A stretch of 23,982 bases of DNA from Paracoccaceae bacterium (GTDB taxonomy: Bacteria > Pseudomonadota > Alphaproteobacteria > Rhodobacterales > Rhodobacteraceae), in NCBI GenBank assembly GCA_007131945.1, contig SLPP01000265.1, forward strand, positions 1-23,982, written 5' to 3'. The notes under the pieces were generated by a model. The model saw nothing but the letters and a program-made list of their open reading frames with translations, searched no databases and had not been told where the DNA came from. Positions within the stretch are counted from its first letter, which is position 1. Each line of letters begins with the position of its first letter. Shown here piece by piece: positions 1 through 23,982 of this stretch. A program made the position numbers and the translations under genes.

Positions 1-830
1 CGATCCGGACCCGCTGGCGCTGGACCGGCTTCGACGGGGACGCGCTGCGCTTCGAGACGCCGGACGGGCAGAAACACGTGGCCGCTGTGCGCACCGTCCT
101 TGCGCTGGGCGGGGCAAGCTGGGCGCGGCTCGGCTCGGACGGGGCTTGGGCGCCAATCCTCGCCGGGCGCGGCGTCGCGCTGGCGCCGTTCACCGCCTCG
201 AATGTCGGCCATCACGTCGCCTGGTCGGAGCACATGCGCGCGCATTTCGGCGCGCCGGTGAAATCGCTCGCGCTGCAGGCCGGCGCGATGCGCCTGCGCG
301 GCGAGATCGTGATCTCGCAAAGGGGGATCGAGGGCGGCGGCCTCTACGCGCTCGCCCGCCCGCTGCGCGAGGGCGCGCCGCTGACGCTCGACCTCTTTCC
401 CGACTGGAGCGTGGAACGCGTCGCCGGGCGTCTCGCCGCGCGACCGCGCCGCGAAAGCGCATCGAACCGCCTGCGCAAGGCGCTGGGGCTGCGGGGCGCG
501 CGGCTGGCGCTGGTGCGGGAATGGCTGCGCCCGCTGCCCGCCGACCCGGGCACGCTCGCCGCGCGGCTCAAGGCGCTGCCGGTGCCGCTCGGCCCGCCGC
601 GGCCGCTCGACGAGGCGATCTCGACCGCCGGCGGCATCCGGCGCGAGGCGCTCGATGCCGGCCTGATGCTGCGCGCGCTCCCCGGCGCCTTCGCCGCGGG
701 CGAGATGCTCGACTGGGACGCGCCTACCGGCGGCTACCTGCTCACCGCCTGCCTCGCCACCGGCCGCCGGGCCGGCCGCGCCGCCGCCGCCTGGACACCT
801 AACATGCGCGAAAAGTTTCGTTACGGTTAA
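1..830 (+). CDS. NAD(P)/FAD-dependent oxidoreductase, HI0933/TIGR03862-type flavoprotein, 5'-truncated
   Basis: The reading frame is open from base 3, so the gene starts outside the window; a GTG at 78 is internal. Only the C-terminal part is visible. The opening residues RWRWTGFDGDALRFETPDG and then TVLALGGASWARLGSDGAW resemble the segment of HI0933-like flavoproteins (TIGR03862 subgroup) where the substrate-domain insertion returns to the FAD fold. Near the end, STAGGIRREALDAGLMLRALPGAFAAGEMLDWDAPTGGYLL (given here only as key parts: TAGG, GEMLDWD, TGGY) matches the FAD-contacting C-terminal strand of that family. The N-terminal GxGxxG dinucleotide fold is not in the window. The specific substrate of this family is unknown to me. 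The last eight residues, MREKFRYG, and the TAA stop lie inside a dispersed repeat (806-885), so the natural C-terminus probably ended a little earlier. No partner gene follows; the next gene converges. Confidence 0.75.
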   Translation, partial: IRTRWRWTGFDGDALRFETPDGQKHVAAVRTVLALGGASWARLGSDGAWAPILAGRGVALAPFTASNVGHHVAWSEHMRAHFGAPVKSLALQAGAMRLRGEIVISQRGIEGGGLYALARPLREGAPLTLDLFPDWSVERVAGRLAARPRRESASNRLRKALGLRGARLALVREWLRPLPADPGTLAARLKALPVPLGPPRPLDEAISTAGGIRREALDAGLMLRALPGAFAAGEMLDWDAPTGGYLLTACLATGRRAGRAAAAWTPNMREKFRYG

Positions 831-885
831 TGGCGCGAAATCGTTGTTTTAAATCATAAGCTTGCTGAAGCGCACAATATTGTGC
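806..885 (-). repeat. Dyad-GTTAACC dispersed element, copy A
   Basis: Orientation is taken as dyad first, GTTAACC box last, so this copy reads on the minus strand, 21 bases after the gph stop. It holds a perfect 14-base dyad GCACAATATTGTGC (872-885), then on the minus strand a CAGCAAG block (first base 867) followed by an ATGAT.TAAAA patch, then ATTAACCGTAACGAAACTTT (831 back to 812) and CGCGC. Bases 811-890 align without net gap to 10269-10348 (copy B): the conserved box, the GCTTGC block and the dyad centre are all offset by exactly 9458. The element covers the stop codon and last codons of the upstream flavoprotein gene. The AT-rich middle (about 838-860) stands out against very GC-rich surroundings. 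Confidence 0.7.
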
Positions 886-906
886 ACCCTGCGCATTCGG
901 ACGGGA

Positions 907-1575
907 TCAGCGGACAGCCCCGGCCAATCCGGCCAGCGTCTCGGCGATCGACGGCAGGTCCGGGTACCGGTCGAAGGCGCGGTCATGCGGGATCGCCTCC
1001 ACCGGCGACTTCCGGTAACCCGGCGTGAAGAGCGCGAAGGGCACCGTCGCCGCCCGCGCCGTCGCCGCATCCACCTCGCTGTCGCCGACATAGACCACCG
1101 GACCCGGCCCCAGCCGCTCGATCACCGCCCTCAGCGGCGCCGGGTCGGGCTTGATTACCGGCAGCGAATCGCCGCCGACCACCGCGTCGAACACCCCCTC
1201 CCAGCCCAGATGCGCCAGCACCGCCCGCGCCGGCGCGACCGGCTTGTTGGTGCACAGCCCCAGCCGCCAGCCCGCGCCGCGCAGCACCGCAAGCGTCTCG
1301 GGCACGTCGGGATAGGGCCGGGTCCGGTCATGGGACATCTCGTAGATCTCGAGGAAGCGCGCCAGCATCCGCGCGTGCCGCGCGGGTTCGGACTGCCCGG
1401 CGGTCGCCTGTTCCAGCCGCGCGATGTAGACCGCCGAGCCGTTGCCGATGAAGCCGCGGCTCTGATCGGCCGTCACCGGCGGCAGCCCCTCGGCGGCCAG
1501 CGCGGCATTGGCCGCGGCGTGGATGTCGGGCGCGCTGTCGATCAGCGTTCCGTCGAGGTCGAAGACCAGGTTCAT
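907..1575 (-). CDS. gph: Phosphoglycolate phosphatase (HAD superfamily)
   Basis: This 222-residue protein is a HAD-superfamily hydrolase of the Gph type, which dephosphorylates 2-phosphoglycolate in the cytoplasm, a product of oxidised DNA-end repair and of Rubisco oxygenation. Motif I is FDLDGTLIDS at residues 5-14 with nucleophile D6 and acid D8; motif II is LCTNKP; motif III is the lysine of VIKPDP; motif IV is VYVGDSEVD with the Mg-binding aspartates. A helical cap domain lies between motifs I and II, as in family C1 caps. The ATG at 1575 overlaps the stop of the AhpD-like gene (ATGA), so this is the last gene of a four-gene translationally coupled operon. A related HAD phosphatase specificity cannot be excluded, but length and motifs fit Gph well. 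Confidence 0.85.
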   Translation of the reverse strand: MNLVFDLDGTLIDSAPDIHAAANAALAAEGLPPVTADQSRGFIGNGSAVYIARLEQATAGQSEPARHARMLARFLEIYEMSHDRTRPYPDVPETLAVLRGAGWRLGLCTNKPVAPARAVLAHLGWEGVFDAVVGGDSLPVIKPDPAPLRAVIERLGPGPVVYVGDSEVDAATARAATVPFALFTPGYRKSPVEAIPHDRAFDRYPDLPSIAETLAGLAGAVR

Positions 1576-2135
1576 CGCGCCTGGGCGTGGTATTCCGGGT
1601 TCGGCTCCATCCCTACGGCTGAAGCGACGCGGTTCGACATGTTGAAGAAGCCGGTGACCGCGGCGATGTCGAAGATGTCGCGATCGGTGAAGCCCTCGGC
1701 GCGCAGCGCGTTGCGGTCGTCCTCGGTGATCTCGGCGCTCGCCTTCGTCGCCTTCTCGACGAAGGCGAGCATCACCTTCTGCCGATGCGTGATCTTCGCC
1801 ACGCGCCAGTTCATGACCATCGCCTCGCCCAGCGCCGGGTCGCCCGAGATCGCTCGCACCGCGGCGCCGTGGGCAACCTGGCAGTACCAGCAGCGATTGA
1901 TCGACGAGACGACGACCGCGATCATCTCGCGCTCGAGCTTGGTCAGGCCCGAGGGCGCCAGCATCAGGTCGTTGTACATCGCCGTGAAGGCATCGAGCTT
2001 GGCGATGTCGAAGGCATAGGCGCGCAGGACATTGGGAACGAGGCCGAGCTTCTCCTGGCAGATCTCGAAATAGCGCGCGGTCGCCTCGGGCAGCGGATCG
2101 ACCTGCGGCAGGTTCAGGGCGGTGGGCTCTGTCAT
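1572..2135 (-). CDS. AhpD-like / carboxymuconolactone decarboxylase-family peroxidase-related protein
   Basis: A 187-residue all-helical protein of the AhpD/CMD superfamily, of the 'peroxidase-related enzyme' subgroup. The redox motif is RCWYCQVAHG at residues 81-90, giving the CxxC pair C82/C85 and H89, which in AhpD relay protons and electrons during peroxide reduction; a Glu about a dozen residues upstream (E70, in KLEREM) fits the usual proton-relay position. The physiological thiol partner is unknown from sequence. It starts with ATG at 2135 inside the 4-base overlap with the upstream acetyltransferase gene and ends overlapping gph, so expression is coupled to both. The position in an operon with damage-related genes suggests a detoxification role, but that is inference. 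Confidence 0.82.
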   Translation of the reverse strand: MTEPTALNLPQVDPLPEATARYFEICQEKLGLVPNVLRAYAFDIAKLDAFTAMYNDLMLAPSGLTKLEREMIAVVVSSINRCWYCQVAHGAAVRAISGDPALGEAMVMNWRVAKITHRQKVMLAFVEKATKASAEITEDDRNALRAEGFTDRDIFDIAAVTGFFNMSNRVASAVGMEPNPEYHAQAR

Positions 2136-2860
2136 GGCGTGTCCTCGGGGGCCTCTCGGTAATGGTAGCCGCCAGCCTCTTCCATGCCCAGCCCGCTGTA
2201 AAGTCCGCGCGCGGCGATGTTGCGCCGGGTGACAGCGAGCGCGAACCAGGCAGCGCCCTGTGCCCGCGCCCAGTCCGCCATGCCGCGCACCATGTAGCGC
2301 GCGACGCCCTGTCGGCGGAACGAGGGCTCGATCTCGAGCGCGTGCAGCATCGCCACCTCTTCGTCGAGCGCGCAGAAACCGACCCCGGCGGCGCGGTTCT
2401 GGAAACGCGCGATGAAGGCCGTGCGCGGCTCGGGCGCGCGCGCCATGACCGCCAGTCGCTCGGGCCCGATCCCGGCATCGCGCCAGATCTGCCTCTGCAG
2501 GGCGAGCGGCGGCCAGCACTGGAAAAGCGAGGAGGGCCGTGGCGTTTCGGCGATCGCGTCGATGGGGGCGGCGTAGAAGACCGTCGGGTCGACCGGGGCG
2601 TAACCTCTGGCGTCGAGCGCCGCGTCGAGCGCCTCGTCCCCCTCGCGGATCATGAAGAGCGGCCGCGCGCCGCGCGCGCGCAAGGTCGCCTCGGCGGCGG
2701 CAAGCGCCTCCTCCGACAACTTCCCGTCGAGCATCGACGCGCTGACCCGCTTGCCGCCGCCGGCCCCGTCGCGCAGCGTGAACGGGCCACAGGCCGCGCG
2801 CGCCGCCGGCGGCCAGGTCGCCTCCAGCGCCGCGTGCAGCCGGGCGGGCGACAGCGTCAT
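2132..2860 (-). CDS. GNAT family N-acetyltransferase
   Basis: A 242-residue protein whose C-terminal half carries a GNAT fold: the acetyl-CoA pyrophosphate loop is IEPSFRRQGVARYMVRG (R/Q-x-x-G-x-A type), preceded by the beta-4 strand EEVAMLHALE and followed by the AxxLYxxxGM-like segment ARGLYSGLGM near residues 217-226. The N-terminal half (about residues 1-110) is a second degenerate GNAT-like half, as in two-domain acetyltransferases. The substrate cannot be predicted. The ATG at 2860 sits in an ATGA overlap with the CinA-like gene, and its stop overlaps the next start, so it is the second gene of the operon. Confidence 0.85.
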   Translation of the reverse strand: MTLSPARLHAALEATWPPAARAACGPFTLRDGAGGGKRVSASMLDGKLSEEALAAAEATLRARGARPLFMIREGDEALDAALDARGYAPVDPTVFYAAPIDAIAETPRPSSLFQCWPPLALQRQIWRDAGIGPERLAVMARAPEPRTAFIARFQNRAAGVGFCALDEEVAMLHALEIEPSFRRQGVARYMVRGMADWARAQGAAWFALAVTRRNIAARGLYSGLGMEEAGGYHYREAPEDTP

Positions 2861-3585
2861 CCGTCGCGACCCACCAGCCGCGACAGCTCGACCATTGCCG
2901 CGTCCAGCCGGCCGGCATCGGTACCGCGCACCACGATCTGCGTTCCGTGCGCGCCATTGCGCAGATAGGGGTAGGAGCCGAAGCTGAGGTCGGGGAACTT
3001 CTGCGCCAGCGCGCCCAGCGGCGTCGCGATATCGCCCTCGCCGCGGCCGACATCGATCATCTGGCTCAGGAGCGGCACGCCCCCGGCGATCCGCGACAGG
3101 ACGCTCGCCAGCATCGCCTGGAAGATCGCCGGCACGCCGGCCATCACATGCACGTTGCCGAGGCTGAAGCCCGGCGCGGCCGAGACCGGGTTCTCGATCA
3201 GGTCGGCGCCATCGGGGATGCGGGCCATGCGCAACCGCGCGGGGTTCAGCTCCAGCCCGGTGCGCGCGTAATGCGCGGCCAGCAGTGCCCGGGCGTCGTC
3301 GCGTATGCCGATCGGTACGCCGAAGGCCGCGGCGACGGCGTCGGCGGTGATGTCGTCATGCGTCGGCCCGATTCCGCCCGAGGTGAAGAGGTGGTCGTTC
3401 TCGGCGCGCAGCCCGTTGACCGCCGCGACGATCCGGTCATGCACATCCGGCACGATCCGCACCTCGCGCAGCCGGATCCCGCGCCCGATCAGCTCGCCTG
3501 CGAGATGGTGCATGTTGGCGTCCCGCGTCCGGCCCGAGAGGATCTCGTCGCCGATAACGAGCATCGCGGCGGTGGGGTTGGTCAT
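2857..3585 (-). CDS. Molybdopterin-binding (MoCF) domain protein, CinA N-terminal-like
   Basis: A 242-residue stand-alone MoCF domain, usually annotated 'competence/damage-inducible protein A', lacking the C-terminal nicotinamide-nucleotide amidohydrolase domain of full CinA. The start of the fold is AMLVIGDEILSGRT (residues 7-20), and the phosphate-binding loop is SGGIGPTHDDIT at 69-80, both hallmarks of MoaB/MogA/CinA MoCF domains. In the family some members hydrolyse ADP-ribose or related damaged nucleotides; the activity here is unproven. An in-frame GTG-type extension to 3645 exists, but the ATG at 3585 (MTNPTAAML) begins exactly where the family homology begins, so I chose it. First gene of the minus-strand operon, divergent from map, with 119 bases between the two starts. 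Confidence 0.82.
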   Translation of the reverse strand: MTNPTAAMLVIGDEILSGRTRDANMHHLAGELIGRGIRLREVRIVPDVHDRIVAAVNGLRAENDHLFTSGGIGPTHDDITADAVAAAFGVPIGIRDDARALLAAHYARTGLELNPARLRMARIPDGADLIENPVSAAPGFSLGNVHVMAGVPAIFQAMLASVLSRIAGGVPLLSQMIDVGRGEGDIATPLGALAQKFPDLSFGSYPYLRNGAHGTQIVVRGTDAGRLDAAMVELSRLVGRDG

Positions 3586-3656
3586 CGCGGGTTCCGTTGC
3601 TTCGATCTGCCGCCGTTTCCTAGCAGGGGCGCGGGGGCTTTCCAATTCCCCCCCTC

Positions 3657-3685
3657 TGGCAATCGTGGATATGCGGCGCTATCTA
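3657..3685 (+). promoter_or_regulatory. Possible sigma70-like promoter for map
   Basis: A TGGCAA (-35 position) and TATCTA (-10 position) pair is separated by 17 bases, ending 19 bases before the GTG start of map. Each hexamer matches the consensus at only three positions, so the spacing is the main support. Confidence 0.3.
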
Positions 3686-3704
3686 GGGCGCAAAGAGGCT
3701 TGAG

Positions 3705-4514
3705 GTGTACGAAAAGGGCGGTCGCATAACGCGCGAAGGGATTCGCATCCACGAACCGGGCGATTTCGCCGGGATGCATGTGGCTGGCCGGGTGGTGGCA
3801 AGGATCCTCGACGACATTGCCGAACATGTCTTTCCCGGCCAGACCACGGCCGAGATCGACCGCATCATCACCGCGATGGTCGCCGCGCACGGCGCCACCT
3901 CGGCGACGATCGGCTATCGCGGCTACCAGCATGCCAGCTGCATCAGCGTCAACCACGTCGTCTGCCACGGCATCCCCGGCGCCAAGGCGCTGAAGGACGG
4001 CGACATCCTCAACATCGACGTGACCGTGATCGTCGACGGCTGGTTCGGCGACAGCTCGCGCATGTATGTCGCTGGCAATCTCAGCCGCAAGGCCGAGCGG
4101 CTGATCCAGGTCACGCATGACGCGCTGATGAAGGGGATAGAGGCGGTTCGGCCGGGCAACACCTTCGGCGACATCGGCCACGCGATCCAGGCTTTCGTCG
4201 AGGCGCACCGCATGTCGGTGGTGCGCGATTTCTGCGGCCACGGGCTTGGGCGGGTCTTCCACGCGCCGCCGAACGTGCTGCATTACGGCCGCCCCGGCCG
4301 CGAGGCGGTGCTGGAGGAAGGCATGTTCTTCACCATCGAGCCGATGGTGAATCTCGGCCGGCCCGAGACGAAGGTGCTGGCCGACGACTGGACCGCGGTG
4401 ACCCGCGACAAGTCGCTCTCGGCCCAATTCGAACACTCCGTCGGCGTGACCGCCAACGGGGCCGATGTTTTCACGCTGTCGCCGGCAGGAAAGTTCCACC
4501 CTACCTGGGGTTGA
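3705..4514 (+). CDS. map: Type I methionine aminopeptidase
   Basis: This 269-residue cytoplasmic metalloprotease removes the initiator methionine from nascent proteins. All five metal ligands of the pita-bread fold are present: D105 (NIDVTV), D116 (FGDSSR), H179 (FCGHGLG), E212 (FTIEPM) and E243 (QFEHSV), with H88 of VCHGIP as the substrate-contacting histidine. Length is typical of type Ia enzymes, with no N-terminal zinc-finger extension. Translation starts at GTG 3705, preceded by AGAGG at 3694-3698; a later ATG (3774) would cut the conserved N-terminal helix. The gene stands alone, divergent from the CinA-like gene and convergent with the BrkB-like gene 25 bases downstream. Confidence 0.95.
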   Translation: MYEKGGRITREGIRIHEPGDFAGMHVAGRVVARILDDIAEHVFPGQTTAEIDRIITAMVAAHGATSATIGYRGYQHASCISVNHVVCHGIPGAKALKDGDILNIDVTVIVDGWFGDSSRMYVAGNLSRKAERLIQVTHDALMKGIEAVRPGNTFGDIGHAIQAFVEAHRMSVVRDFCGHGLGRVFHAPPNVLHYGRPGREAVLEEGMFFTIEPMVNLGRPETKVLADDWTAVTRDKSLSAQFEHSVGVTANGADVFTLSPAGKFHPTWG

Positions 4515-4539
4515 ATTCCGCGCGCAAAGCCGGCTGAAA

Positions 4540-5391
4540 TCAGACCCGCCCCCGGCCGGAAACCGGACTTTCCTCCAGCACGTAATTGAGCGCGGCGCCG
4601 AGCAGCACCGCGTAGGCGGAAATGTAGAACCAGAGCATGAGCACGATAACCGCCCCGATCGAGCCATAGATTTCGTTGAAATCTCCGAAATGGGACAGGT
4701 ATAACGTGAAACCCAGCGAGGCCCCCGCCCAGAGCCCCAGCGCCAGAAACAATCCCGGTGACAGGAAAGCACTGCGCGCGGTGTCCGGCCGGTTCGGGCC
4801 GTAGCGGTAGAAAATGCCGAGGCCGACGACCAGGACCACGACCGAGATCGCCCAGCGCAGGACCTCGACGACGAAGGGAAACCAGCTGCCAGCCGGGATG
4901 AAGGGCGTCAGCAGCGCCAGGGTCAGCGGCGCGACCAGCATCGCGAAAAGCGCCGTCACGCCGACCCCGATCAGCACCGCCGTCAGGGAAAGCGCCATGG
5001 CAAGGCTCCAGAACCCGCCGCGCGGATCGCCGCCATAGATCGCGTTGACGCCCTGGATCAACGCATCGACACCCAGCCGCGCCGCCCAGGCGGCCGCGAG
5101 AAGCGAGATCAGCGAGGTCAGGCCGAGCGTCGAACTGGCCGCGCCGAGCAGCTTTCCCACCTGCTCCTCGATCAGCGCATAGGCGTCTTCGGGAAGGAAT
5201 TCCGACGCGACCTCAAGCGCTTCCTCGACAACCACAGGGTCGGCCCAGAACGCGATCAGGCCGATCACCGCAGCGAGCGCGGGAAAGACGGCGAGCATGG
5301 CGAAGAACGCAACGCCGGCAGCCATCATGCCGAGCCGGCGTTCGCCCATCAGTTGCCAGATGGCCAGTCCCGCAGAAAGAACCCGCGGCAC
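4540..5391 (-). CDS. YihY/BrkB-family inner-membrane protein
   Basis: A 283-residue polytopic protein with about six hydrophobic segments (roughly residues 22-50, 92-112, 128-160, 175-200, 212-236 and 243-270). Family signatures are the N-terminal GMMAAGVAFFAMLAVFPAL segment, the central STLGLTSLISLLAAAW, and the C-terminal YGSIGAVIVLMLWFYISAYAVLLGAALN (key residues YGS..A....L.W.Y....A.L.GA..N). Earlier annotation as ribonuclease BN is not supported for this family; function is unknown, probably an envelope or transport role. It starts with GTG at 5391, only three bases after the stop of the H-NS-like gene, so the two are probably cotranscribed and translationally coupled. Confidence 0.87.
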   Translation of the reverse strand: MPRVLSAGLAIWQLMGERRLGMMAAGVAFFAMLAVFPALAAVIGLIAFWADPVVVEEALEVASEFLPEDAYALIEEQVGKLLGAASSTLGLTSLISLLAAAWAARLGVDALIQGVNAIYGGDPRGGFWSLAMALSLTAVLIGVGVTALFAMLVAPLTLALLTPFIPAGSWFPFVVEVLRWAISVVVLVVGLGIFYRYGPNRPDTARSAFLSPGLFLALGLWAGASLGFTLYLSHFGDFNEIYGSIGAVIVLMLWFYISAYAVLLGAALNYVLEESPVSGRGRV

Positions 5392-5394
5392 CGG

Positions 5395-5706
5395 TCAGAT
5401 GGCGAGGTCGTCCAGGCTCTTGCCCTTGGCCAGCGCCTCTTCCAGCCAGCGCGGCCGCCGCCCGCGCCCGGTCCAGGTCTGCGCCGGATCGTCGGGATTG
5501 GCGTATTTCGGCTTGGCCGGCTTGCGGGTGCGCCGTTTCACAAGGTCCGACAGGTCGGCGGGATTGAGCCCGCGCTCGCGGGCAAAGGCCTCGACCTCGG
5601 CGAGCGCCTTTTTCTTTTCGCGATCCTTGAAATTCTTGATCTCGTTCGCAACGTCCTTTTGCAGCTTTTTCAGCTCGTCCAAAGACAGCTTTTCCAGGTC
5701 GATCAT
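5395..5706 (-). CDS. H-NS family nucleoid-associated protein, HvrA-like
   Basis: A 103-residue DNA-binding protein. Residues about 3-45 form a charged, heptad-rich coiled coil (LEKLSLDELKKLQKDV...) for oligomerisation; a basic linker KRRTRKPAKPKYANP follows; and the H-NS C-terminal AT-hook-like motif is TWTGRGRRP at 76-84 within an otherwise typical YANPDDPAQTWTGRGRR core. This architecture matches HvrA and other short alphaproteobacterial H-NS proteins, which bind curved AT-rich DNA and affect photosynthesis or nitrogen genes in Rhodobacter. The ATG at 5706 is preceded by GGAG at good spacing, and a 7-bp hairpin lies immediately upstream of that ribosome binding site. It is followed by the BrkB-like gene after three bases. 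Confidence 0.9.
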   Translation of the reverse strand: MIDLEKLSLDELKKLQKDVANEIKNFKDREKKKALAEVEAFARERGLNPADLSDLVKRRTRKPAKPKYANPDDPAQTWTGRGRRPRWLEEALAKGKSLDDLAI

Positions 5707-5719
5707 TCACGCTCTCCGC

Positions 5720-5737
5720 TTCCGGTTTCGACCGGAA
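5720..5737 (-). promoter_or_regulatory. Hairpin in the 5' leader of the H-NS-like gene
   Basis: A perfect 7-bp inverted repeat, TTCCGGT/ACCGGAA with a 4-base loop, ends 13 bases before the ATG and just before the GGAGAG ribosome binding site. In the mRNA the loop reads CGAA. Its place between an AT-rich stretch and the Shine-Dalgarno suggests translational or stability control, but no experiment or known motif supports a specific mechanism. Confidence 0.5.
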
Positions 5738-5786
5738 ATAAATCGAAAGACTGCACCGCGCAATAAAAATTCGCGAGCGAAAGGAA

Positions 5787-6776
5787 TCATTCGCGGTTTC
5801 TCGCCCGCGTTTCTCGCCAGATCATGTAGATTCCCGATCCGACGATCAACAGAATGCCGGTCCAGGACATCCCGTCGGGCAATTCGGAAAAGACCACGAA
5901 ACCCCAGAAGATCGCCATCGGCATGGCGACGTATTCCAGCGGCGCGATCAGGGCGGCCTCGCATATGCGATATGCCTGGGAAATTAGGAAGCCGCCGATG
6001 GCACTGCCCAGCCCGGTCAGCAGGAAGAGCAGGGCATCCGCCGGATCGGGCCAGACCCAGGCGCGCAGCAGGAAGGAAAGCGAGGCATGCGTGCCGGCAT
6101 CGAAGCGGCCATCGCCGATGCCGAGCCCGACGAGGACGCTGAAGACGAGGAAGGCCAGCTGCATGTAGACCGCCATCGTCGCCGCGCTGTCGGTGGCACC
6201 CAGCCGGCGGGTCAGCATGTGCAGCGCGGCATAGCAGGTCGCGGCGAGGAGCGGCAGCAGCGCCACCGGCGTGAAGGCCTCCGTTCCAGGCCGGATCATG
6301 ATCAGGACGCCCAGGAACCCCACCCCGATCGCCGCCCAGCGGCGCGGGCCGACCGTCTCGGACAGGAAGATAACCGAGAAGACCGCGATCACCATCGGGC
6401 TGATGAAGAAGATCGCGGTCGCATCGGCGATCGGCATCGCGGCGAGGGCGAGGAAGAAGGCCATGTTCGCGCCCAGAAGGAAACAGCCGCGCAGCAGGTG
6501 AATCACCGGGCGGCGCGTGCGCAACTGCGCCAGCCCGCCGGTGAACGGGATCACCAGCCCGACCAGCAGACCCAGCGCGACGAAGGCGCGAATCAGCGTC
6601 ACCTGGTGGAGCGGATAGCTGCCGGACAGCGACTTGACCGCCATGTCGCCCAGCGTGAAGGCGGCGGCGGCGCCCACGGCGCAGAGCGCGCCGAGAGTCG
6701 CCGCGGAGAGCGCCGGGCGGGAAGTCGGCTTCGGACGATGGATGCGCGCGGAGTCTTTCACAGGTGCAATGAACAC
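5787..6776 (-). CDS. DMT superfamily (EamA) transporter
   Basis: A 329-residue inner-membrane protein with ten hydrophobic segments arranged as two EamA repeats (about residues 27-165 and 170-320). Typical features are the LG.MAVKSL..YPLHQVTLIRAF opening helix pair, IADATAIFFISPMVIAVFSVIFLSE closing repeat one (key residues A.A.F...P......F.SE), and APLEYVAMPMAIFWGFVVFSELPDG in repeat two. Such proteins export small metabolites or amino acids; the substrate cannot be told. The start at GTG 6776 gives a 25-residue hydrophilic N-tail; GTG 6761 is an alternative, and neither has a strong ribosome binding site. It lies 33 bases downstream of the SH3/COG3650 gene on the same strand. Confidence 0.87.
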   Translation of the reverse strand: MFIAPVKDSARIHRPKPTSRPALSAATLGALCAVGAAAAFTLGDMAVKSLSGSYPLHQVTLIRAFVALGLLVGLVIPFTGGLAQLRTRRPVIHLLRGCFLLGANMAFFLALAAMPIADATAIFFISPMVIAVFSVIFLSETVGPRRWAAIGVGFLGVLIMIRPGTEAFTPVALLPLLAATCYAALHMLTRRLGATDSAATMAVYMQLAFLVFSVLVGLGIGDGRFDAGTHASLSFLLRAWVWPDPADALLFLLTGLGSAIGGFLISQAYRICEAALIAPLEYVAMPMAIFWGFVVFSELPDGMSWTGILLIVGSGIYMIWRETRARNRE

Positions 6777-6809
6777 CCTGCCCCCGCCGCCCGCAAGCCC
6801 GCGCGTCGG

Positions 6810-7424
6810 TCAGTCGCCGAGCGTGCAGCAGCCCGAGAGCCCGGTCGTGTCGCCACGCCAGTAGACCTGACCCTCGAGCCCGTAGAGCCGGTCGCTCATC
6901 CCGTCCGAACAGGCCGCGTTCTCGCGAATCACCACCATCCCCTCGCGCATGCCCGAAAAGGGCACCGCCAGCGTCGGCGGGAAGGCCGTGGTCGGCAGGG
7001 CGCCGGCATCGGCGACCAGCTCGAAGCCGCCGTGATCCGGCTCGTGAACCTCGATCCGGTGTGTCGGCAGGAAGATCGGCATCGACCAGAAGGGCTCGGT
7101 CCCGAAGCAGCGCAGCGACGTCTCGCCGTCGCGCCAGGTCTCCGGCCCCTGCCGCGCCAGGTGGCGCAGCGCGACCCAGCCGACCCCCTCGCCGGCATTG
7201 ATCCGCCCCCAGCGACCGCTTTCGGAAAGCGCCGTCACCTCGATCCCGGTGGCGTCATGCGCGAGCCCGCCGATGACCGCGAACCCGATGCCGGGCCCGG
7301 TTCGGATGTTCAGCCGATCGTCGGCCGCGACACCGGTGACGGCGTGGAGCGCCGGCAGCGGTCCCGCAGCCGCCGGGGCGCCGGCGAGGCCGAGCAGGAA
7401 AACCGCGATCGTCAGGCGCATCAT
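6810..7424 (-). CDS. Exported SH3-domain / COG3650-like protein
   Basis: A 204-residue predicted periplasmic protein. Residues 1-21 are a Sec signal peptide (MMRLTIAVFLLGLAGAPAAAG, basic start, hydrophobic core, AxA-type cleavage near 18-20). Residues about 28-90 form a bacterial SH3 fold, with the marker LNIRTGPGIGFAVIGGL and WGRI..GEGVGWVALRHL. The remainder opens with LRCFGTEPFWSM, the signature of COG3650 proteins, and contains C196-C197-type paired cysteines near the end. SH3b domains often bind peptidoglycan or peptides; the role is unknown. The start at ATG 7424 has GGGGAG upstream; ATG 7421 is nearly equivalent. The gene is divergent from cysQ across 129 bases. Confidence 0.8.
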   Translation of the reverse strand: MMRLTIAVFLLGLAGAPAAAGPLPALHAVTGVAADDRLNIRTGPGIGFAVIGGLAHDATGIEVTALSESGRWGRINAGEGVGWVALRHLARQGPETWRDGETSLRCFGTEPFWSMPIFLPTHRIEVHEPDHGGFELVADAGALPTTAFPPTLAVPFSGMREGMVVIRENAACSDGMSDRLYGLEGQVYWRGDTTGLSGCCTLGD

Positions 7425-7461
7425 GTCACTCCCCGCTTGCTCGGACCCGGTGCCGGCCTCG

Positions 7462-7495
7462 GGCCGGGCGCGCGGCTTGCCTTCCGCGCCCGGCC
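7462..7495. repeat. 11-bp perfect inverted repeat between the SH3 gene and cysQ
   Basis: GGCCGGGCGCG (7462-7472) pairs perfectly with CGCGCCCGGCC (7485-7495) around a 12-base loop, in the centre of the 129-base divergent intergenic region. It could be an operator or a leader hairpin for either gene; it is not followed by a T tract, and no gene ends there, so a terminator is unlikely. Confidence 0.5.
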
Positions 7496-7553
7496 GAAGG
7501 ATAAACGCCGCCGCCGCCCTCGGGCAACCGGCAAGCACGCAAAGGAGCGCGGC

Positions 7554-8351
7554 ATGCGCGAAGCCGAGTTCGAACGGATCGAGACCGCCTTGCGCGCCAT
7601 CGCGCTCGAAGCCGGGGCGCTGATCATGCATGTCTACGACCGGGCGATTTCGACGGCGCGGACGAAGGACGATTCGAGCCCGGTGACCGAAGCCGACGAG
7701 GCCGCCGACGCGCTGATCGCCCGCCGCCTGGCCGAGGCCTTCCCCGACATCCTGGTCGTGACCGAGGAGCAGGCCGCGAGCCACGACCGCCGCGCCAGCC
7801 GCTTCTTCATCGTCGACCCGCTCGACGGAACCAAGGAATTCATCAGGCGCCGGGGCGATTTCACCGTCAACATCGCGCTTGTCGAGGACGGAACGCCGCT
7901 GCGCGGCGTCGTCTACGCACCGGCAAAGGGCCGGCTCTTCTATACCCGCGCCGACGGCGCCAGCGTCGAGGAAAGCGGCCCGTTCGGCGACCGGCCGGGC
8001 GCCCGGCACCCGATCCGCGTCGCCCGGCCCGACAACAACGCCCTGCGCGTCGTCGCCTCGAAATCCCACCGCGACGCGGCGACCGACGCCTATATCGCCC
8101 GCTACCGGGCCGCCGAGGCCAAGAGCGCCGGCTCCTCGCTCAAGTTCTGCCTGATCGCCGCCGGCGAGGCCGACCTCTATCCCCGGCTCGGCCGGACGAT
8201 GGAATGGGATACCGCCGCCGGGCACGCCATCGTCCTCGGCGCCGGCGGAAAGGTCGTGCGGCTTGATGACCGGACGCCGCTCGCCTATGGTAAGGAAGGG
8301 TACGAGAATCCCTTTTTCCTTGCTTTCGCTCCCGGCGTCGTGCTGGCTTGA
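7554..8351 (+). CDS. cysQ: 3'(2'),5'-bisphosphate nucleotidase CysQ
   Basis: A 265-residue Mg-dependent phosphatase of the inositol monophosphatase superfamily, which converts PAP to AMP and keeps sulfate assimilation running. Metal-binding motifs are in order: the SPVTEADEAAD segment (residues 42-52), E71/E72 in VVTEEQ, D88-P-L-D91-G-T in the family signature, and EWDTAAGHAI near residue 223 closing the site. DPLDGTKEFI is diagnostic for CysQ over plain inositol phosphatases. The ATG at 7554 has AAAGGAG at 7541-7547. The frame stays open far upstream but without homology. It is followed 114 bases later by galU on the same strand; no clear terminator or promoter was seen between them. Confidence 0.92.
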   Translation: MREAEFERIETALRAIALEAGALIMHVYDRAISTARTKDDSSPVTEADEAADALIARRLAEAFPDILVVTEEQAASHDRRASRFFIVDPLDGTKEFIRRRGDFTVNIALVEDGTPLRGVVYAPAKGRLFYTRADGASVEESGPFGDRPGARHPIRVARPDNNALRVVASKSHRDAATDAYIARYRAAEAKSAGSSLKFCLIAAGEADLYPRLGRTMEWDTAAGHAIVLGAGGKVVRLDDRTPLAYGKEGYENPFFLAFAPGVVLA

Positions 8352-8465
8352 GCGAAGCGATTCCGCGGTGCCGGCCACGGCATTGCCATATCCGTGCCGC
8401 CTTTGGTGATCAGAAGATTTGCGGCGCGGCCGCGATAGTGATGTGACAAGGATTGGCAGGACAGC

Positions 8466-9359
8466 ATGCGATACAAAGTGACCAAGGCAATTTTTCCCGT
8501 GGCGGGTCTGGGAACCCGCTTCCTTCCCGCCACCAAGTCGATCCCGAAGGAGATCCTTACGCTCGTCGACCGCCCCCTGATCCAGTATGCGATCGACGAG
8601 GCGCGGGCCGCGGGAATCACCGAATTCGTCTTCGTCACCTCCCGCGGCAAGAGCGCGCTCGAGGATTACTTTGACCGCGCGCCCGAACTCGAATCGGCGC
8701 TGAAGGAGAAGAACAAGAGCGAGCTCCTGACCTTGCTCGAAGCGACGAACATGGAAAGCGGCGCCATCGCCTATGTCCGCCAGAACCAGGCGCTGGGGTT
8801 GGGCCATGCCGTCTGGTGCGCCCGTCATCTGATCGGCGACGAGCCCTTCGCGGTTATCCTGCCCGACGACGTCATCACCGGCGAGGAGCCCTGCCTCAAG
8901 CAGATGGTCGAGGCCTATGCCGAGCTAGGCGGCAACATGGTCGCGGCGATGGAAGTGGCGACCGACAAGGCCTCGGCCTATGGCATTCTCGACGTGCCGC
9001 CCTCGGTCAGCCGCTGCCTGCCGGTGCGCGGCATGGTCGAGAAGCCCGCCGCCGGCACCGCGCCGTCGAACCTTGCCATCATCGGCCGCTACATCCTGAC
9101 CCCGCAGGTGCTGCGCAATCTCGACGGCCAGCAGCGCGGCGCGGGCGGCGAGATCCAGCTTACCGACGCGATCGCGCAGGAGATCCGGAACTCGGACAAT
9201 GTCCACGGCTACCGCTTCAGCGGGCAGCGCTTTGACTGCGGCTCGAAGGCGGGCTACCTGCAGGCGACGGTCGCCTTCGCCCTGTCGCGGCCCGACCTGC
9301 GCGACGAACTCGAAGCCTATCTGCAGGAGCTTCTCGCCACGCGGCAGGCCGCGCAGTAA
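8466..9359 (+). CDS. galU: UTP-glucose-1-phosphate uridylyltransferase
   Basis: A 297-residue cytoplasmic nucleotidyltransferase that makes UDP-glucose for exopolysaccharide and lipopolysaccharide synthesis. The nucleotide-binding signature GLGTRFLPATKSIPKEIL begins near residue 13, followed by DRPLIQYAIDEA; the later motifs FAVILPDDVI, GMVEKP and NLAIIGRYIL, then GEIQLTDAI and FDCGSKAGYLQA, are all typical of bacterial GalU. Length and motif order are normal. The ATG at 8466 follows a purine-rich AAGGATTGGCAGGA leader. With the phosphohexomutase and Wza-like export protein further right it forms a polysaccharide precursor and export theme, although the genes are not one operon. Confidence 0.95.
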   Translation: MRYKVTKAIFPVAGLGTRFLPATKSIPKEILTLVDRPLIQYAIDEARAAGITEFVFVTSRGKSALEDYFDRAPELESALKEKNKSELLTLLEATNMESGAIAYVRQNQALGLGHAVWCARHLIGDEPFAVILPDDVITGEEPCLKQMVEAYAELGGNMVAAMEVATDKASAYGILDVPPSVSRCLPVRGMVEKPAAGTAPSNLAIIGRYILTPQVLRNLDGQQRGAGGEIQLTDAIAQEIRNSDNVHGYRFSGQRFDCGSKAGYLQATVAFALSRPDLRDELEAYLQELLATRQAAQ

Positions 9360-9373
9360 CCGGGCAGGCCGCG

Positions 9374-9386
9374 GCGCGAATCGCGC
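9374..9386 (+). terminator. Short dyad after galU, possible terminator hairpin
   Basis: GCGCGA-A-TCGCGC is a perfect interrupted dyad 14 bases after the galU stop. Its position matches the dyads of the dispersed elements, but there is no GTTAACC box and no T tract, and such a GC palindrome is easy to get by chance here. Confidence 0.25.
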
Positions 9387-9430
9387 GCGAAGGGCTTGCA
9401 GCCTGCGGCGCGCGGGCGTTCACTCGCGCC

Positions 9431-10225
9431 ATGGACTGGACGGCCGAAGGTCTTCTGCTGCAGACGCGCCCGCATGGCGAGAGCGCCGCGATCGTCACGG
9501 CGCTCACCGCCGAGCATGGCGTGCATGCGGGCGTCGTGCGCGGCGGGACCGGGCGGCGCATGGCGCCGGTGCTGCAGCCCGGCGCGCTCCTGCACCTGAC
9601 CTGGCGGGCGCGCCTGCACGACCATCTCGGCACCTTCACGGCCGAGCCGGTGCGCGCCCATGCCGCGGCGCTGATGGCCGATCCCGACCGGCTGGCCGCG
9701 CTGAGTTCGGCCTGCGCGCTCGCCGCCTTCGCACTCCCCGAGCGCGAGCCGCAGCCGCGGCTCTATCCGGCGACGCTGGCGCTTTTCGACCGGATGGCGC
9801 GCGGCGCGCCCTGGTTCGGCGCCTATCTCGCCTGGGAGCGGCTGCTGCTCGAGGAGACGGGCTACGGGCTCGACCTGACCCGCTGCGCGCTCAGCGGCGC
9901 GACCGAGGGGCTGGCGCTGGTTTCGCCGCGCAGCGGCCGGGCGGTGACGGCAGAGGCCGCGGGCGGTTTCGCGCCGCGTCTTCTGCCCCTGCCGTCGCTG
10001 CTCGCCGACCCGGAAGCCGAGCCCGCCGATCCCCGCGCCGAGATGGCGCTGGGCCTCGAGACGACCGGGCATTTCCTAGCCCGTGTCCTGGCCCCGGCGC
10101 TGGGCGAGAGGCCGCTGCCCGAGGCCCGCGCCCGCCTTGCCGCCCGCTTCGTTCCGGAAGACGGTGCTCGCTGGCGAGCAAACCAGCAAGAGCATGATAT
10201 AAAAAGAGAAAATGACAGGCGTTAA
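9431..10225 (+). CDS. recO: DNA repair protein RecO, with an element-derived C-terminal tail
   Basis: A RecF-pathway protein that anneals SSB-coated single strands and helps load RecA. Residues 1-80 form the OB-fold: the start MDWTAEGLLLQTRPHGESAAIV and the VVRGGTGRRMAPVLQPGALL segment are typical of alphaproteobacterial RecO (key blocks HGE, HG.H.G.VRGG, RRM.P.LQPG). The helical C-terminal domain covers about 85-240 with no zinc-binding cysteine cluster. The ordinary family C-terminus is reached near residue 240. The last 19 residues, ARWRANQQEHDIKRENDRR, are encoded entirely by dispersed element copy D and use codons such as ATA, AGA and AGG that are out of character for this genome. The TAA stop is part of the element's GTTAAC box. 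The ATG at 9431 lies 71 bases after galU. Confidence 0.88.
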   Translation: MDWTAEGLLLQTRPHGESAAIVTALTAEHGVHAGVVRGGTGRRMAPVLQPGALLHLTWRARLHDHLGTFTAEPVRAHAAALMADPDRLAALSSACALAAFALPEREPQPRLYPATLALFDRMARGAPWFGAYLAWERLLLEETGYGLDLTRCALSGATEGLALVSPRSGRAVTAEAAGGFAPRLLPLPSLLADPEAEPADPRAEMALGLETTGHFLARVLAPALGERPLPEARARLAARFVPEDGARWRANQQEHDIKRENDRR

Positions 10226-10250
10226 CCGCATGGAAAGTATTTCCCGCGCC
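10165..10250 (+). repeat. Dyad-GTTAACC dispersed element, copy D
   Basis: This copy has a perfect dyad TGCTCGC-TG-GCGAGCA (10165-10180), a CAGCAAG block (10184-10190) followed by an ATGATATAAAA patch (10194-10204), and the box GTTAACCGCATGGAAAG (10221-10237), ending near CGCGCC at 10250. The distance from dyad centre to the first base of the box is 48.5 bases. Bases 10184-10204 match copy A (867 back to 847) at 17 of 21 positions, and the 18 bases from 10220 to 10237 are identical to 12317-12334 in copy C. It lies within the 3' end of recO and supplies its last 19 codons and stop. Confidence 0.7.
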
Positions 10251-10262
10251 ACTGGGGCAGCC

Positions 10263-10343
10263 GGGCGCGAAAGTTTCGTTGCGGTTAACGGGCGCGTTTT
10301 CCCACGTTATTTCAAGCGCTTGCCGGAGTGTCCAAATTTGGAC
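10263..10343 (-). repeat. Dyad-GTTAACC dispersed element, copy B
   Basis: Reading on the minus strand, 19 bases after the SDR stop, this copy has a perfect 14-base dyad GTCCAAATTTGGAC (10330-10343), a CGGCAAG block (first base 10325), a moderately AT-rich middle, and GTTAACCGCAACGAAACTTT (10289 back to 10270), ending in CGCGCCC. The dyad-centre to box distance is 47.5 bases, the same as copy A. It lies head-to-head with copy D, 12 bases apart, so that GTTAACCGCA (10221-10230) and TGCGGTTAAC (10280-10289) form an inverted pair. A small additional palindrome CAAGCGCTTG lies at 10313-10322. Confidence 0.7.
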
Positions 10344-10362
10344 GCCCCGGACCGGTGCGCGC

Positions 10363-11148
10363 TCAGATCGTCGCGTTGATCGCGCCGCCATCGAGCAGGA
10401 TGTTCTGCCCGACGATGAAGCCCGCATGCTGGCTGCACAGGAAGGCGCACATCGCCCCGAACTCGGCCGGCGTGCCGTAGCGGCCGGCGGGGATGGTCGC
10501 CTCGCGGCGCCGGCGCGCCTCGGCGAGGTCGATCCCCTCGCGCTCGGCCACGCCGCCATCGAGCGCGGTGGCGCGGTCGGTGTCGTGGATGCCGGGCAGG
10601 AGGTTGTTGACGATCACCCCCTTGCCCGCCACCTGCCGCGCCATGCCGGCGACGAAGCCGGTAAGCCCGGTACGCGCGGTGTTCGAGAGCCCCAGCACCG
10701 GGATCGGCGCCTTGACCGAGCCCGAGGTGACGTTGACCACCCGCCCCCAGCCGCGGTCGATCATGCCGGGCACCAGCGCCTGCATCAGCGCGATCGGCGC
10801 CAGCATGTTGGCGTCGAAGGCGCGCAGGAAATCGTCGCGGCCCCAGTCGGTCCAGGCCCCCGGCGGCGGGCCGCCGGCATTGGTGACGAGGATGTCCACC
10901 GCGCCGGCCGCGTCCAGCACCTCGGCGCGGCCCGCCTCGCTGGTGATGTCGGCGGCGACCGGCGTCACCGGAACCCCATGCGCCGCCTCGAGCGCGCGCG
11001 CCGTTTCGGCCAGCGCCTCGGCGCCGCGGGCATTGATGACAAGCTCGACGCCCGCGCCGGCCAGCGCCTCGGCGCAGCCGCGCCCCAGCCCCCTGCTCGC
11101 CGCGCAGACCAGCGCGCGCCTTCCGCGAATTCCCAGGTCCATCCGCAT
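10363..11148 (-). CDS. SDR family oxidoreductase with an altered active site
   Basis: A 261-residue Rossmann-fold protein of the short-chain dehydrogenase/reductase superfamily. The N-terminal cofactor loop is AASRGLGRG (residues 16-24), DI follows at 67-68, NAGG at 90-93, and N114 and S142 occupy the usual structural and catalytic positions. The catalytic Tyr-x-x-x-Lys is missing: at the expected spacing the segment LGLSNTARTGLTGF puts S155 in place of Tyr and R159 in place of Lys. The C-terminal GQNILLDGGAI is normal. Such atypical SDRs are often annotated as 3-oxoacyl-ACP reductases, but the classical chemistry is doubtful here. ATG 11148 has GGGAG upstream; ATG 11142 is an alternative. 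The gene is divergent from the Usp gene. Confidence 0.85.
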   Translation of the reverse strand: MRMDLGIRGRRALVCAASRGLGRGCAEALAGAGVELVINARGAEALAETARALEAAHGVPVTPVAADITSEAGRAEVLDAAGAVDILVTNAGGPPPGAWTDWGRDDFLRAFDANMLAPIALMQALVPGMIDRGWGRVVNVTSGSVKAPIPVLGLSNTARTGLTGFVAGMARQVAGKGVIVNNLLPGIHDTDRATALDGGVAEREGIDLAEARRRREATIPAGRYGTPAEFGAMCAFLCSQHAGFIVGQNILLDGGAINATI

Positions 11149-11192
11149 TCTCCCGTTTTCCGCTCACTAACCGGAAGACGGGCCGGGCGCAA

Positions 11193-11222
11193 TTGACGCA
11201 TCCGGCGGTTGCAGCCTAGGAT
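11193..11222 (+). promoter_or_regulatory. Probable sigma70-type promoter for the universal stress gene
   Basis: TTGACG (11193-11198) and TAGGAT (11217-11222) are separated by 18 bases, giving five of six and four of six consensus matches. Transcription would begin near 11229, leaving a leader of about 90 bases before the ATG at 11319. The promoter lies in the 170-base divergent region shared with the SDR gene. Confidence 0.5.
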
Positions 11223-11318
11223 CGAAGTGCACGCAATCTCAGGATCCGGACCGATGCCCGTTGCACCGAGCGCCCTGCAGGCCCCGCGGGTCGGCGAACG
11301 CCTTGTCGGAGAAGGAAG

Positions 11319-12248
11319 ATGAGGCCCAGCGCGATTCTCGCGGCGAGCGACCTGTCGCCGCGCTCGGCGCAGGTCGGCGGGCGCGCCGCGCGAATCGCGC
11401 AGCGCCTCGAGGCGCGCCTGATCGTCGCCCATGTCGCGCCTGCCGACCTGGTGGAACTGCCCGAGGAAGCGCCCAGGGTGCCGGTCGAGGCGGTCGCCGA
11501 CGAAGGCGGCGGCGCGCTTGCCGAGGCGCCCTCCGGCCCGCTGCGCTCGCTGGGCCAGCGCCTGCTCGGCCGGCGGATGCGACGTGGGATCGACGGCCCC
11601 GCGCGGGCGCTCGACGCGGCCGCGCGCGGGCTCCTGCCGAAGCCCGAGTTGCGCCTGCTTGCCGGCGAACCCGCCGAGGAGCTGTCCCGGCTGGCGACGG
11701 ACGAGGGCGCCGCGCTAATGGTTCTGGGCCTGCACCGCGAACGCCGCGTGCTGGATGTCCTGCGCCTGACGACGATGGAGCGGATCGTCCTTGCCGCCCC
11801 GGTCCCGGTGCTGATCGCCCATCGCGACGCCGGCCGGCCCTATCGACGGGTTCTGGCGCTGACCGATTTCTCGCCCGCCTCGGCGGCCGCCCTGCGCTTC
11901 GCCGCCCGCCTCGCGCCCGAGGCGGAGTTCCACGCGATCCACGCCCTGCAACTGCCGCTCGGGGCGCGGCTGGCGGCGCCGGATGCGGCGCCGGACGATT
12001 TCCTCACCCAGGCCGAGCAGATGCGCGCCGCCTTCCTTGCCGCGCCGGGCCTGCCGCGGCTGGCCGAGGCGCCCGAGATCGTGCCGGGCGGCGTGCACGA
12101 GGTCCTTGCCTACCGGCAGGTCGAACTCGACGCCGATCTGGTCTGCATCGGCACCCATTCCGGGCGCGACCCCGAGCAGTTGGGAAACTATGCGCGCGAC
12201 CTGATGCGGGCGCCGCCGACCGATCTTCTGGTCGCGAAACCGGGGTGA
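11319..12248 (+). CDS. Tandem-domain universal stress protein (UspA family)
   Basis: A 309-residue cytoplasmic protein with two Usp folds. Domain one starts with AILAASDLSPRSAQVGGRAARIA and ends with LMVLGLHRERRVLDVL...APVPVLIAH near residue 165, with a long insertion (about residues 48-105) rich in Ala, Pro and Arg. Domain two starts with RRVLALTDFSPASAAALRFAARLA near 172 and ends with VCIGTHSGRDPEQLGNYARDL and DLLVAK. The ATP-binding GxxG-x9-G(S/T) loop is degenerate in both, GLHRERR in the first and GTHSGRDPEQLGNYA in the second, so nucleotide binding is uncertain. GAAGGAAG precedes the ATG. Stress or redox roles are family-level knowledge only. It is a single gene convergent with PBP1A. 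Confidence 0.85.
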   Translation: MRPSAILAASDLSPRSAQVGGRAARIAQRLEARLIVAHVAPADLVELPEEAPRVPVEAVADEGGGALAEAPSGPLRSLGQRLLGRRMRRGIDGPARALDAAARGLLPKPELRLLAGEPAEELSRLATDEGAALMVLGLHRERRVLDVLRLTTMERIVLAAPVPVLIAHRDAGRPYRRVLALTDFSPASAAALRFAARLAPEAEFHAIHALQLPLGARLAAPDAAPDDFLTQAEQMRAAFLAAPGLPRLAEAPEIVPGGVHEVLAYRQVELDADLVCIGTHSGRDPEQLGNYARDLMRAPPTDLLVAKPG

Positions 12249-12262
12249 TCGCCGCGCCGGCC

Positions 12263-12345
12263 GCTCAATTTGAGCACGCCGTTCAACTTGTTGATCTCGA
12301 TCGGGAATCCATGCGACGTTAACCGCATGGAAAGCTTTGTCCGGA
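12263..12345 (+). repeat. Dyad-GTTAACC dispersed element, copy C
   Basis: Fourteen bases after the Usp stop lies the dyad GCTCAA-T-TTGAGC (12263-12275). The box GTTAACCGCATGGAAAG (12318-12334) follows with a dyad-centre distance of 49 bases. The box and its preceding C are identical over 18 bases to copy D. The segment just after the dyad (ACGCCGTTCAACTTG) has lost the CRGCAAG block, so this is the most diverged copy in its left half; the right end after the box is less certain. Confidence 0.6.
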
Positions 12346-23908: not shown

Positions 23909-23982
23909 GGCGGGTTGGCGGAGAGGTTACGCAGCGGATTGCAAATCCGTGTAGACCGGTTCGATTCCGGTACCCGCCTCCA
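23909..23982 (+). tRNA. tRNA-Cys (anticodon GCA)
   Basis: A complete 74-base cloverleaf. The acceptor stem GGCGGGT pairs with ACCCGCC, followed by T73 and an encoded CCA that is the last base triplet of the window. The anticodon stem-loop is GCGGA-TTGCAAA-TCCGT with GCA at the anticodon position, and the T arm is CCGGTTCGATTCCGG. The D arm (GCGGAGAGGTTACGC) contains the usual GG. Integrating elements often use tRNA 3' ends, but nothing beyond the CCA can be seen. Confidence 0.95.

What the first reader, a model, noticed from the sequence alone, without database searches (positions are those of the whole stretch)
806..12345. Four copies of an undescribed ~80-bp 'dyad-GTTAACC' element at convergent gene junctions
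Copies at 806-885 (-), 10165-10250 (+), 10263-10343 (-) and 12263-12345 (+) share one architecture: a 13-16 base perfect dyad, a CRGCAAG block in three of four, an AT-rich middle, then a GTTAACCGCA..GAAA box. The dyad-centre to box distances are 47.5, 47.5, 48.5 and 49 bases. Copies A and B are offset by exactly 9458 bases at box, GCTTGC block and dyad centre. Copies C and D share 18 identical bases in the box. All three convergent junctions longer than about 70 bases contain at least one copy, while the two short ones (25 and 19 bases) contain none. I do not recognise this as a known repeat family.
Basis: seen in the sequence. Interest (0 to 1): 0.8.

Follow-up and report, generated by a model that had tools for sequence, protein, structure and literature searches.

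The report
Repeated DNA element between converging genes
This bacterium carries more than a hundred copies of a short, rigidly built DNA element, mostly where two genes run towards each other; two genomes of the same genus lack it, and its mirror-image part keeps changing letters while staying a mirror image.

Summary
A model built from 38 copies finds 148 matches in the own draft genome and 149 in Pararhodobacter sp. SW119, each at a ceiling of 150 scored candidates. The element is about 85 bp with three parts at fixed spacing: a 16-bp palindrome, an IHF-consensus site, and a TTAACC-led box that reads TTAA-N7-TTAA, the CtrA pattern, in a distant relative. In 400 unselected kb of SW119 it occupies 19 of 40 convergent, 3 of 85 codirectional and 0 of 58 divergent junctions of 90 bp or more. 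At 16 orthologous places the box is 91% identical, flanks 37-39%, and the palindrome changes mostly on both arms together. Two same-genus genomes lack it. A low-sensitivity pattern found it only in this family. No known family matched. Best reading: a RIB-like, IHF-bending extragenic element that separates convergent transcription units. The anatomy is shown; the mechanism (hairpin plus DNA-bound roadblock) is inferred. Covariation almost without G-U intermediates points to pairing or copying at DNA level and is the most surprising part.

The parts
815..831 (-). Copy A box (ATTAACCGTAACGAAAC)
852..864 (-). Copy A IHF-like site (CAAGCTTATGATT)
   Evidence: consensus
871..886 (-). Copy A palindrome (core GCACAATATTGTGC)
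10165..10180 (+). Copy B palindrome (TGCTCGCTGGCGAGCA), inside the recO frame
10187..10199 (+). Copy B IHF-like site (CAAGAGCATGATA)
10221..10237 (+). Copy B box (GTTAACCGCATGGAAAG), holds the recO stop codon
10273..10289 (-). Copy C box (GTTAACCGCAACGAAAC)
10310..10322 (-). Copy C IHF-like site (CAAGCGCTTGAAA)
10329..10344 (-). Copy C palindrome (CGTCCAAATTTGGACA)
12262..12276 (+). Copy D palindrome, odd (GCTCAATTTGAGC)
12284..12296 (+). Copy D IHF-like site (CAACTTGTTGATC)
12318..12334 (+). Copy D box (GTTAACCGCATGGAAAG)

Best explanation
A dispersed, vertically kept extragenic element that marks and insulates the ends of convergent transcription units. Shown: three parts at fixed spacing (palindrome at 0, IHF consensus at about +14 to +26, TTAACC-led 11-bp-period repeat at +48 and +59), strong convergent preference in the own/G297 clade, orthologous retention and arm covariation. 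Inferred: IHF bends the middle and an OmpR/CtrA-type protein sits on the box. Together they form a roadblock that halts RNA polymerase just as the palindrome's hairpin leaves the enzyme, so the proximal gene terminates without a proper U-tract and the opposing gene's polymerase is stopped from the other side. The arms stay matched because DNA-level templated copying (template switching) or DNA hairpin selection rewrites both together. A lineage that loses a required trans factor would lose the whole set.
For: Anatomy: 136 of 158 copies match at least 8 of 9 specified IHF positions at the fixed place, against 0 of 158 random places and 1 of 158 shuffles. TTAA-N7-TTAA in 17 of 19 G172 copies (+49/+60), TTAA at +60 in 10 of 17 G229 copies, at +58 in 6 of 10 G277 copies, at +48 or +49 in 76 of 79 own copies and 76 of 79 G297 copies. 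Place: 19/40 convergent, 3/85 codirectional, 0/58 divergent junctions of at least 90 bp (Fisher 8e-9 and 1.5e-9). 16 of 16 close pairs among the listed matches are tail to tail, palindromes outermost. Constraint: 16 orthologous pairs, box 91% identical, flanks 37-39%; 5 of 6 syntenic junctions keep an element. Hairpin dG median about -12 kcal/mol against -4 to -6 shuffled.
Against: No expression or binding data. T content after the hairpin is low (2-3 in 8 in 109 of 158 copies), and terminators found by my simple scan are equally rare at ends with and without the element (8/65 v 17/80 own, 8/66 v 9/92 G297), so termination is not supported directly. In distant carriers many copies lie elsewhere: in G229 7 of 17, and in the pooled g8, G125 and G238 set 9 of 20, lie upstream of a start codon between codirectional genes. 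In own/G297 the second half-site is GAAA, not TTAA. CtrA is present in carriers and non-carriers alike (14 of 14), so it does not explain the distribution. An RNA hairpin alone should show G-U intermediates in the core; they are almost absent.
Confidence: 0.4

Rival explanations
1. Nucleoid or topology site, as proposed for BIME/RIB elements: IHF and partner proteins fold DNA or recruit a topoisomerase where convergent transcription piles up positive supercoils; transcription effects are secondary.
For: Convergent preference, IHF consensus, little U-tract. RIBs bind IHF and lie at 3' ends of transcription units (title of Boccard and Prentki 1993, seen only in reference lists).
Against: Does not explain why the arms must match, nor the 16 of 16 tail-to-tail order of close pairs with each palindrome next to its own gene, nor copies upstream of start codons in G229 and g8.
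Confidence: 0.25
2. A non-autonomous mobile or REP-like repeat, spread in some lineages by a transposase or hairpin-recognising nuclease and now mostly inherited.
For: Patchy distribution (16 of 390 family genomes match a low-sensitivity pattern, one of them probably by chance), high copy number, genome-specific palindromes, mixed contexts in distant genera. The only 2 of 22 genomes with a Y1_Tnp match, G297 and G172, are both rich carriers.
Against: Orthologous retention; no Y1_Tnp match in 10 of 12 carriers tested, the own genome among them, which is 92% complete; no terminal inverted repeats seen in the consensus; constraint on box and IHF site.
Confidence: 0.2
3. A regulatory site for a two-component regulator of the CtrA/OmpR type that drives or blocks antisense or downstream transcription.
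For: TTAA-N7-TTAA geometry in G172 equals the CtrA full site (PMC6180460 passages); in G229 and g8 many copies lie upstream of genes.
Against: Own and G297 carry GAAA in the second half; 0 of 58 divergent junctions of at least 90 bp carry it in G297; CtrA occurs in all 14 genomes tested; the non-carrier G073 also has 21 TTAACC-N5-TTAA sites, so that pattern alone is not specific.
Confidence: 0.1

Closest known systems
RIB / RIP elements (IHF-binding BIME-1 of E. coli)
   Same: Repeated extragenic element with a palindrome and an IHF site, at 3' ends of transcription units.
   Different: No blastn match of one copy in the E. coli genome collection; one palindrome rather than paired REPs (recalled); adds a TTAACC direct repeat at fixed spacing; strong convergent preference.
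REP sequences with RAYT (GTAG and CGTC super-families)
   Same: High-copy intergenic palindromes, mostly between convergent or codirectional genes (PMC3733652, passages).
   Different: No Y1 transposase match in the own genome and 10 of 12 carriers tested; no invariant unpaired GTAG/CGTC tag; almost no G-T pairs in the core, whereas that paper notes frequent GT pairing.
Bradyrhizobium 3'-UTR REPs
   Same: An alphaproteobacterial repeat with palindromes in the overlapping 3'-UTRs of convergent genes (PMC5082802, passages).
   Different: Described there as holding three palindromes; I did not compare sequences.
Caulobacter intergenic repeats (CIR1-4)
   Same: About 110-bp intergenic repeats in alphaproteobacteria (PMC2229807, passages).
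   Different: CIRs carry a conserved GANTC; here GANTC occurs in 17 of 158 copies at no fixed place.
CtrA full site
   Same: TTAA-N7-TTAA in 17 of 19 G172, 3 of 10 G277 and a few g8 copies.
   Different: Own and G297 have TTAA-N7-GAAA plus further fixed letters; not at divergent (promoter) junctions; joined to an IHF site and a palindrome.

Membership tests
RIB/RIP (BIME-1) | IHF site within the repeat | tested here: met
   Consensus match in 136 of 158 copies; binding itself not tested
RIB/RIP (BIME-1) | Location at 3' ends of transcription units | tested here: met
   22 of 22 element-bearing junctions in 400 kb of G297 border a gene 3' end; less so in G229 and g8
RIB/RIP (BIME-1) | Homology to E. 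coli BIME/REP sequence | tested here: not met
   No blastn match in E. coli genomes, one query copy
REP with RAYT | Y1 (RAYT-type) transposase in the genome | tested here: not met
   PF01797: no match in the own genome (92% complete) and in 10 of 12 carriers tested; matches in carriers G297 and G172
REP with RAYT | Unpaired GTAG or CGTC tag at one end of the hairpin | tested here: not met
   No such invariant unpaired tag in the column table
CIR | Conserved GANTC | tested here: not met
   17 of 158, scattered
MITE | Terminal inverted repeats | tested here: not met
   By eye on the consensus: ends are G-rich..palindrome and ..YTTTSG, no inverted repeat between them
MITE | Target-site duplication at insertion | not tested
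   No clean empty site was examined
CtrA site | TTAA-N7-TTAA | tested here: inconclusive
   17 of 19 G172 copies; 0 of 158 own/G297 copies, which read TTAA-N7-GAAA
Intrinsic terminator | Stable hairpin followed by a U-tract | tested here: inconclusive
   Hairpin stable (median about -12 kcal/mol), T content low
Rfam families | Match to a curated family | tested here: not met
   Only a tRNA in the window; no match over an element in 5 loci at E up to 0.5

The most novel reading that the evidence does not exclude
Convergent gene ends in Rhodobacteraceae carry lineage-specific marker elements that are swapped as whole sets between species of one genus, depending on an unidentified trans factor. 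The palindrome of this one is kept symmetric not by protein recognition but by DNA-level copying of one arm from the other: six core pairs are Watson-Crick in 924 of 942 cells over 157 copies, with 4 G-U and 2 A-C cells, while four of these six pairs alternate freely between base-pair types.
Probability: 0.3. Interest if true: 0.85.

Novelty: new variant of a known kind. Interest (0 to 1): 0.66.

Why it matters
It offers about 150 or more natural replicates per genome of an element whose palindrome changes letters but not symmetry, with matched orthologous junctions and element-free genomes of the same genus. That makes two open questions testable: what separates convergent genes in bacteria with few classical terminators, and whether template switching, rather than slow compensatory mutation, keeps hairpins paired. 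It also adds a family of IHF-bearing extragenic repeats outside enterobacteria.

Tried and rejected
REP/RAYT transposition: no Y1_Tnp match in the own genome and 10 of 12 carriers tested, though both genomes that do match (G297, G172) are carriers, so this is not closed. Plasmid, phage and E. coli relatives of one copy: none; two viral contigs hold the 17-letter box pattern and were not followed up. Classical terminators: a home-made scan found them equally rare at ends with and without the element, so it decided nothing. Trans factor: CtrA was the only candidate tested and is in all 14 genomes. A first loose scan for relatives in G187 and G125 used too strict a pattern and found only one of the four window copies; it was repeated with a looser one, which found three of four in the window and nothing above control in G187 (3 v 3) and weak unconvincing hits in G125 (3 v 0). 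A first regex for the G187 motif was wrong and gave 0; corrected. CenR was considered because it is OmpR-type, but its published motif is TGA-N8-TGA. CIR was rejected on GANTC. LuxR/tra-box, attC, oriT and parS likeness came to mind from recall only and were not tested.

Full report
Observation. The box GTTAACSGCANNGAAA with up to one mismatch occurs 126 times in the own genome against 1 for the reversed control. Aligning 38 distinct copies on the box without gaps, the four window copies among them, showed a conserved element of about 85 bp. A covariance model of these gave 148 matches in the own genome and 149 in G297, each out of 150 scored candidates, so true numbers may be higher. G297 is Pararhodobacter sp. 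SW119: contig lengths agree with NZ_JADDJF records, for example 400459, 239678 and 196928. Two Rhodobacteraceae MAGs, by their names from sediment, also hold the box pattern, and one match lies in a Brocadia genome that I did not examine.

Anatomy. Measured from the palindrome centre in 158 copies (79 own, 79 G297: those that passed my filters in the fetched loci), the consensus is a G-rich lead; a 16-bp palindrome with near-invariant G at -7 and C at -4 and their partners; CTT; a GGCAAG-N3-TTGATAT block; an A-rich stretch; CGCC; then GTTAACCGCAAYGAAACYTTTG. The CAAGNNNYTGAWW part is the reverse complement of the IHF consensus WATCARNNNNTTR (consensus recalled): 136 of 158 match 8 or 9 of 9 positions, against 0 of 158 at random places and 1 of 158 in shuffles. 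The palindrome-to-box offset is 47 in 69 of 79 own and 68 of 79 G297 copies.

The box has an 11-bp period. In G172, 17 of 19 copies that pass the regex read TTAA-N7-TTAA at +49/+60; G229 keeps TTAA at +60 in 10 of 17; G277 at +58 in 6 of 10; own and G297 have TTAA at +48/+49 followed by GAAA. TTAA-N7-TTAA is the published CtrA full site (PMC6180460, passages). Genome-wide, TTAACC-N5-GAAA occurs 146 and 130 times in own and G297 but 2 and 3 times in the same-genus genomes G187 and G098. TTAACC-N5-TTAA occurs 5 and 6 times in own and G297 and 46 times in G172; the non-carrier G073 has 21.

Place. In 400 kb of one G297 contig, taken without regard to elements, 24 elements fall in 22 junctions: 19 of 40 convergent, 3 of 85 codirectional and 0 of 58 divergent junctions of at least 90 bp; none of 173 junctions under 90 bp has one (Fisher 8e-9 and 1.5e-9). 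In the element-centred loci own copies are 46 convergent, 15 and 8 codirectional, 0 divergent and 10 at edges; G297: 54, 16 and 7, 1, 1. Genes were called with my own codon-usage finder, not a published tool. All 16 pairs of listed matches starting within 400 bp (9 own, 7 G297) are tail to tail, palindromes outermost. In distant carriers the contexts are mixed: G172 (19 copies) 8 downstream codirectional, 5 convergent, 1 upstream codirectional, 1 divergent, 4 at an edge; G229 (17) 7 upstream of a start, 6 convergent, 3 downstream, 1 divergent; pooled g8, G125 and G238 (20) 9 upstream, 4 convergent, 3 downstream, 3 inside a gene call, 1 edge. Some g8 copies precede hpf-like and citramalate-synthase-like frames, named by my reading only. 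So the convergent rule belongs to the own/G297 clade.

Conservation. Of 25 locus pairs linked by protein similarity I kept 16 as orthologous and dropped 9 (low-identity paralogues, or the other copy of a double junction). In these 16 the box is 91% identical, the flanks 37-39% without gaps, and palindrome pairs 2-8 are unchanged in 67 cells, changed on both sides in 34 and on one side in 11; independent arms would give about 14 and 51. Among own copies whose neighbours lie in the 400-kb stretch, 5 of 6 junctions carry an element in G297; by copy, of 8, five in the same orientation, one flipped, two missing. In G187, none of 9 orthologous gene ends, inspected by eye, has it.

Covariation. Over 157 copies (one with fewer than 6 matched pairs dropped; the centre was chosen for best symmetry, which favours pairing a little), pairs 2-7 are Watson-Crick in 924 of 942 cells, with 4 G-U, 2 A-C and 12 other; pair 1 in 136 of 157; pair 8 has 18 G-U and 5 A-C; outer pairs 9, 11 and 13 pair above shuffles. 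Pairs 4 and 7 hardly vary; pairs 2, 3, 5 and 6 alternate. Positions 5, 6, 8 and positions 1, 2, 3 form two groups with only weak coupling between them. A homodimer cannot require that two half-sites match while their letters vary, so pairing or copying must be at work (inference). The lack of G-U in the core and the constraint on pair 2, too tight for an RNA loop, favour DNA. Template switching can make such both-sided changes (PMC8794818, abstract and introduction). Against this, the outer G-U bias favours a transcribed hairpin in the element's forward direction, though base composition may also cause it; both may hold. In G172 most palindromes carry one mismatch, which neither idea predicts.

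Distribution. The generic pattern hits only 16 of at least 148 own copies and is thus insensitive. It matched 16 of 390 family genomes with no control match in any; G012's match looks spurious. Rich genomes: G297 46, G000 16, G172 14, G277 12, G238 11. Of 385 genomes drawn from the class (5 from this family, 380 from others) only the own genome matched; one genome had a control match. With the model, G172 gave 53 matches, G229 23, G277 11, G167 6, G125 4, G007 2, G187 one weak and G098 none. CtrA is in all 14 genomes tested.

Print. My paper searches (open-licence PMC only) listed nothing that by title or abstract start describes this element. I saw passages of PMC9275681, PMC6180460, PMC2229807, PMC3733652, PMC12306157, PMC5082802 and PMC9071471. 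Other papers are not covered, so an earlier description remains possible.

Verdict. A real, constrained element, seen in one family only, closest in kind to RIB elements, with a new composition. Function is inferred, not shown.

Noticed in passing
L083-L092 (G187, same-genus genome without the element): A different motif, GGATATTTNNGGAACAAAGATG, often after a run of C: 11 regex matches in 200 kb, 0 reversed control; of 10 intergenic ones 7 are convergent, 3 codirectional, none divergent; no match in 400 kb of G297, 200 kb of G125 and the window. It may fill the same niche in a related lineage.
   Followed up: partly
window 9431-10225 +: recO frame (Pfam RecO_N and RecO_C) runs through copy B and stops at the TAA of its box, so the element encodes its last residues.
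   Followed up: partly
window 3-830 +: HI0933-like flavoprotein gene ends at a TAA inside copy A's box.
   Followed up: partly
L093-L102 (G125): G125 has its own runs of adjacent perfect palindromes (such as GAAAACCCGGGTTTTC) spaced 23 bp apart.
   Followed up: no
L068-L142 (G172 loci): Most G172 palindromes carry one mismatch at pair 5 or 6 (commonest TGTTCGCGCGCGGACA); the perfect TGTCCGCGCGCGGACA was not among the 27 printed.
   Followed up: no
L341, L342: Two IMG/VR viral contigs hold the box pattern GTTAACCGCAAYGAAAC.
   Followed up: no
window 23909-23979 +: tRNA gene near the window end.
   Followed up: no
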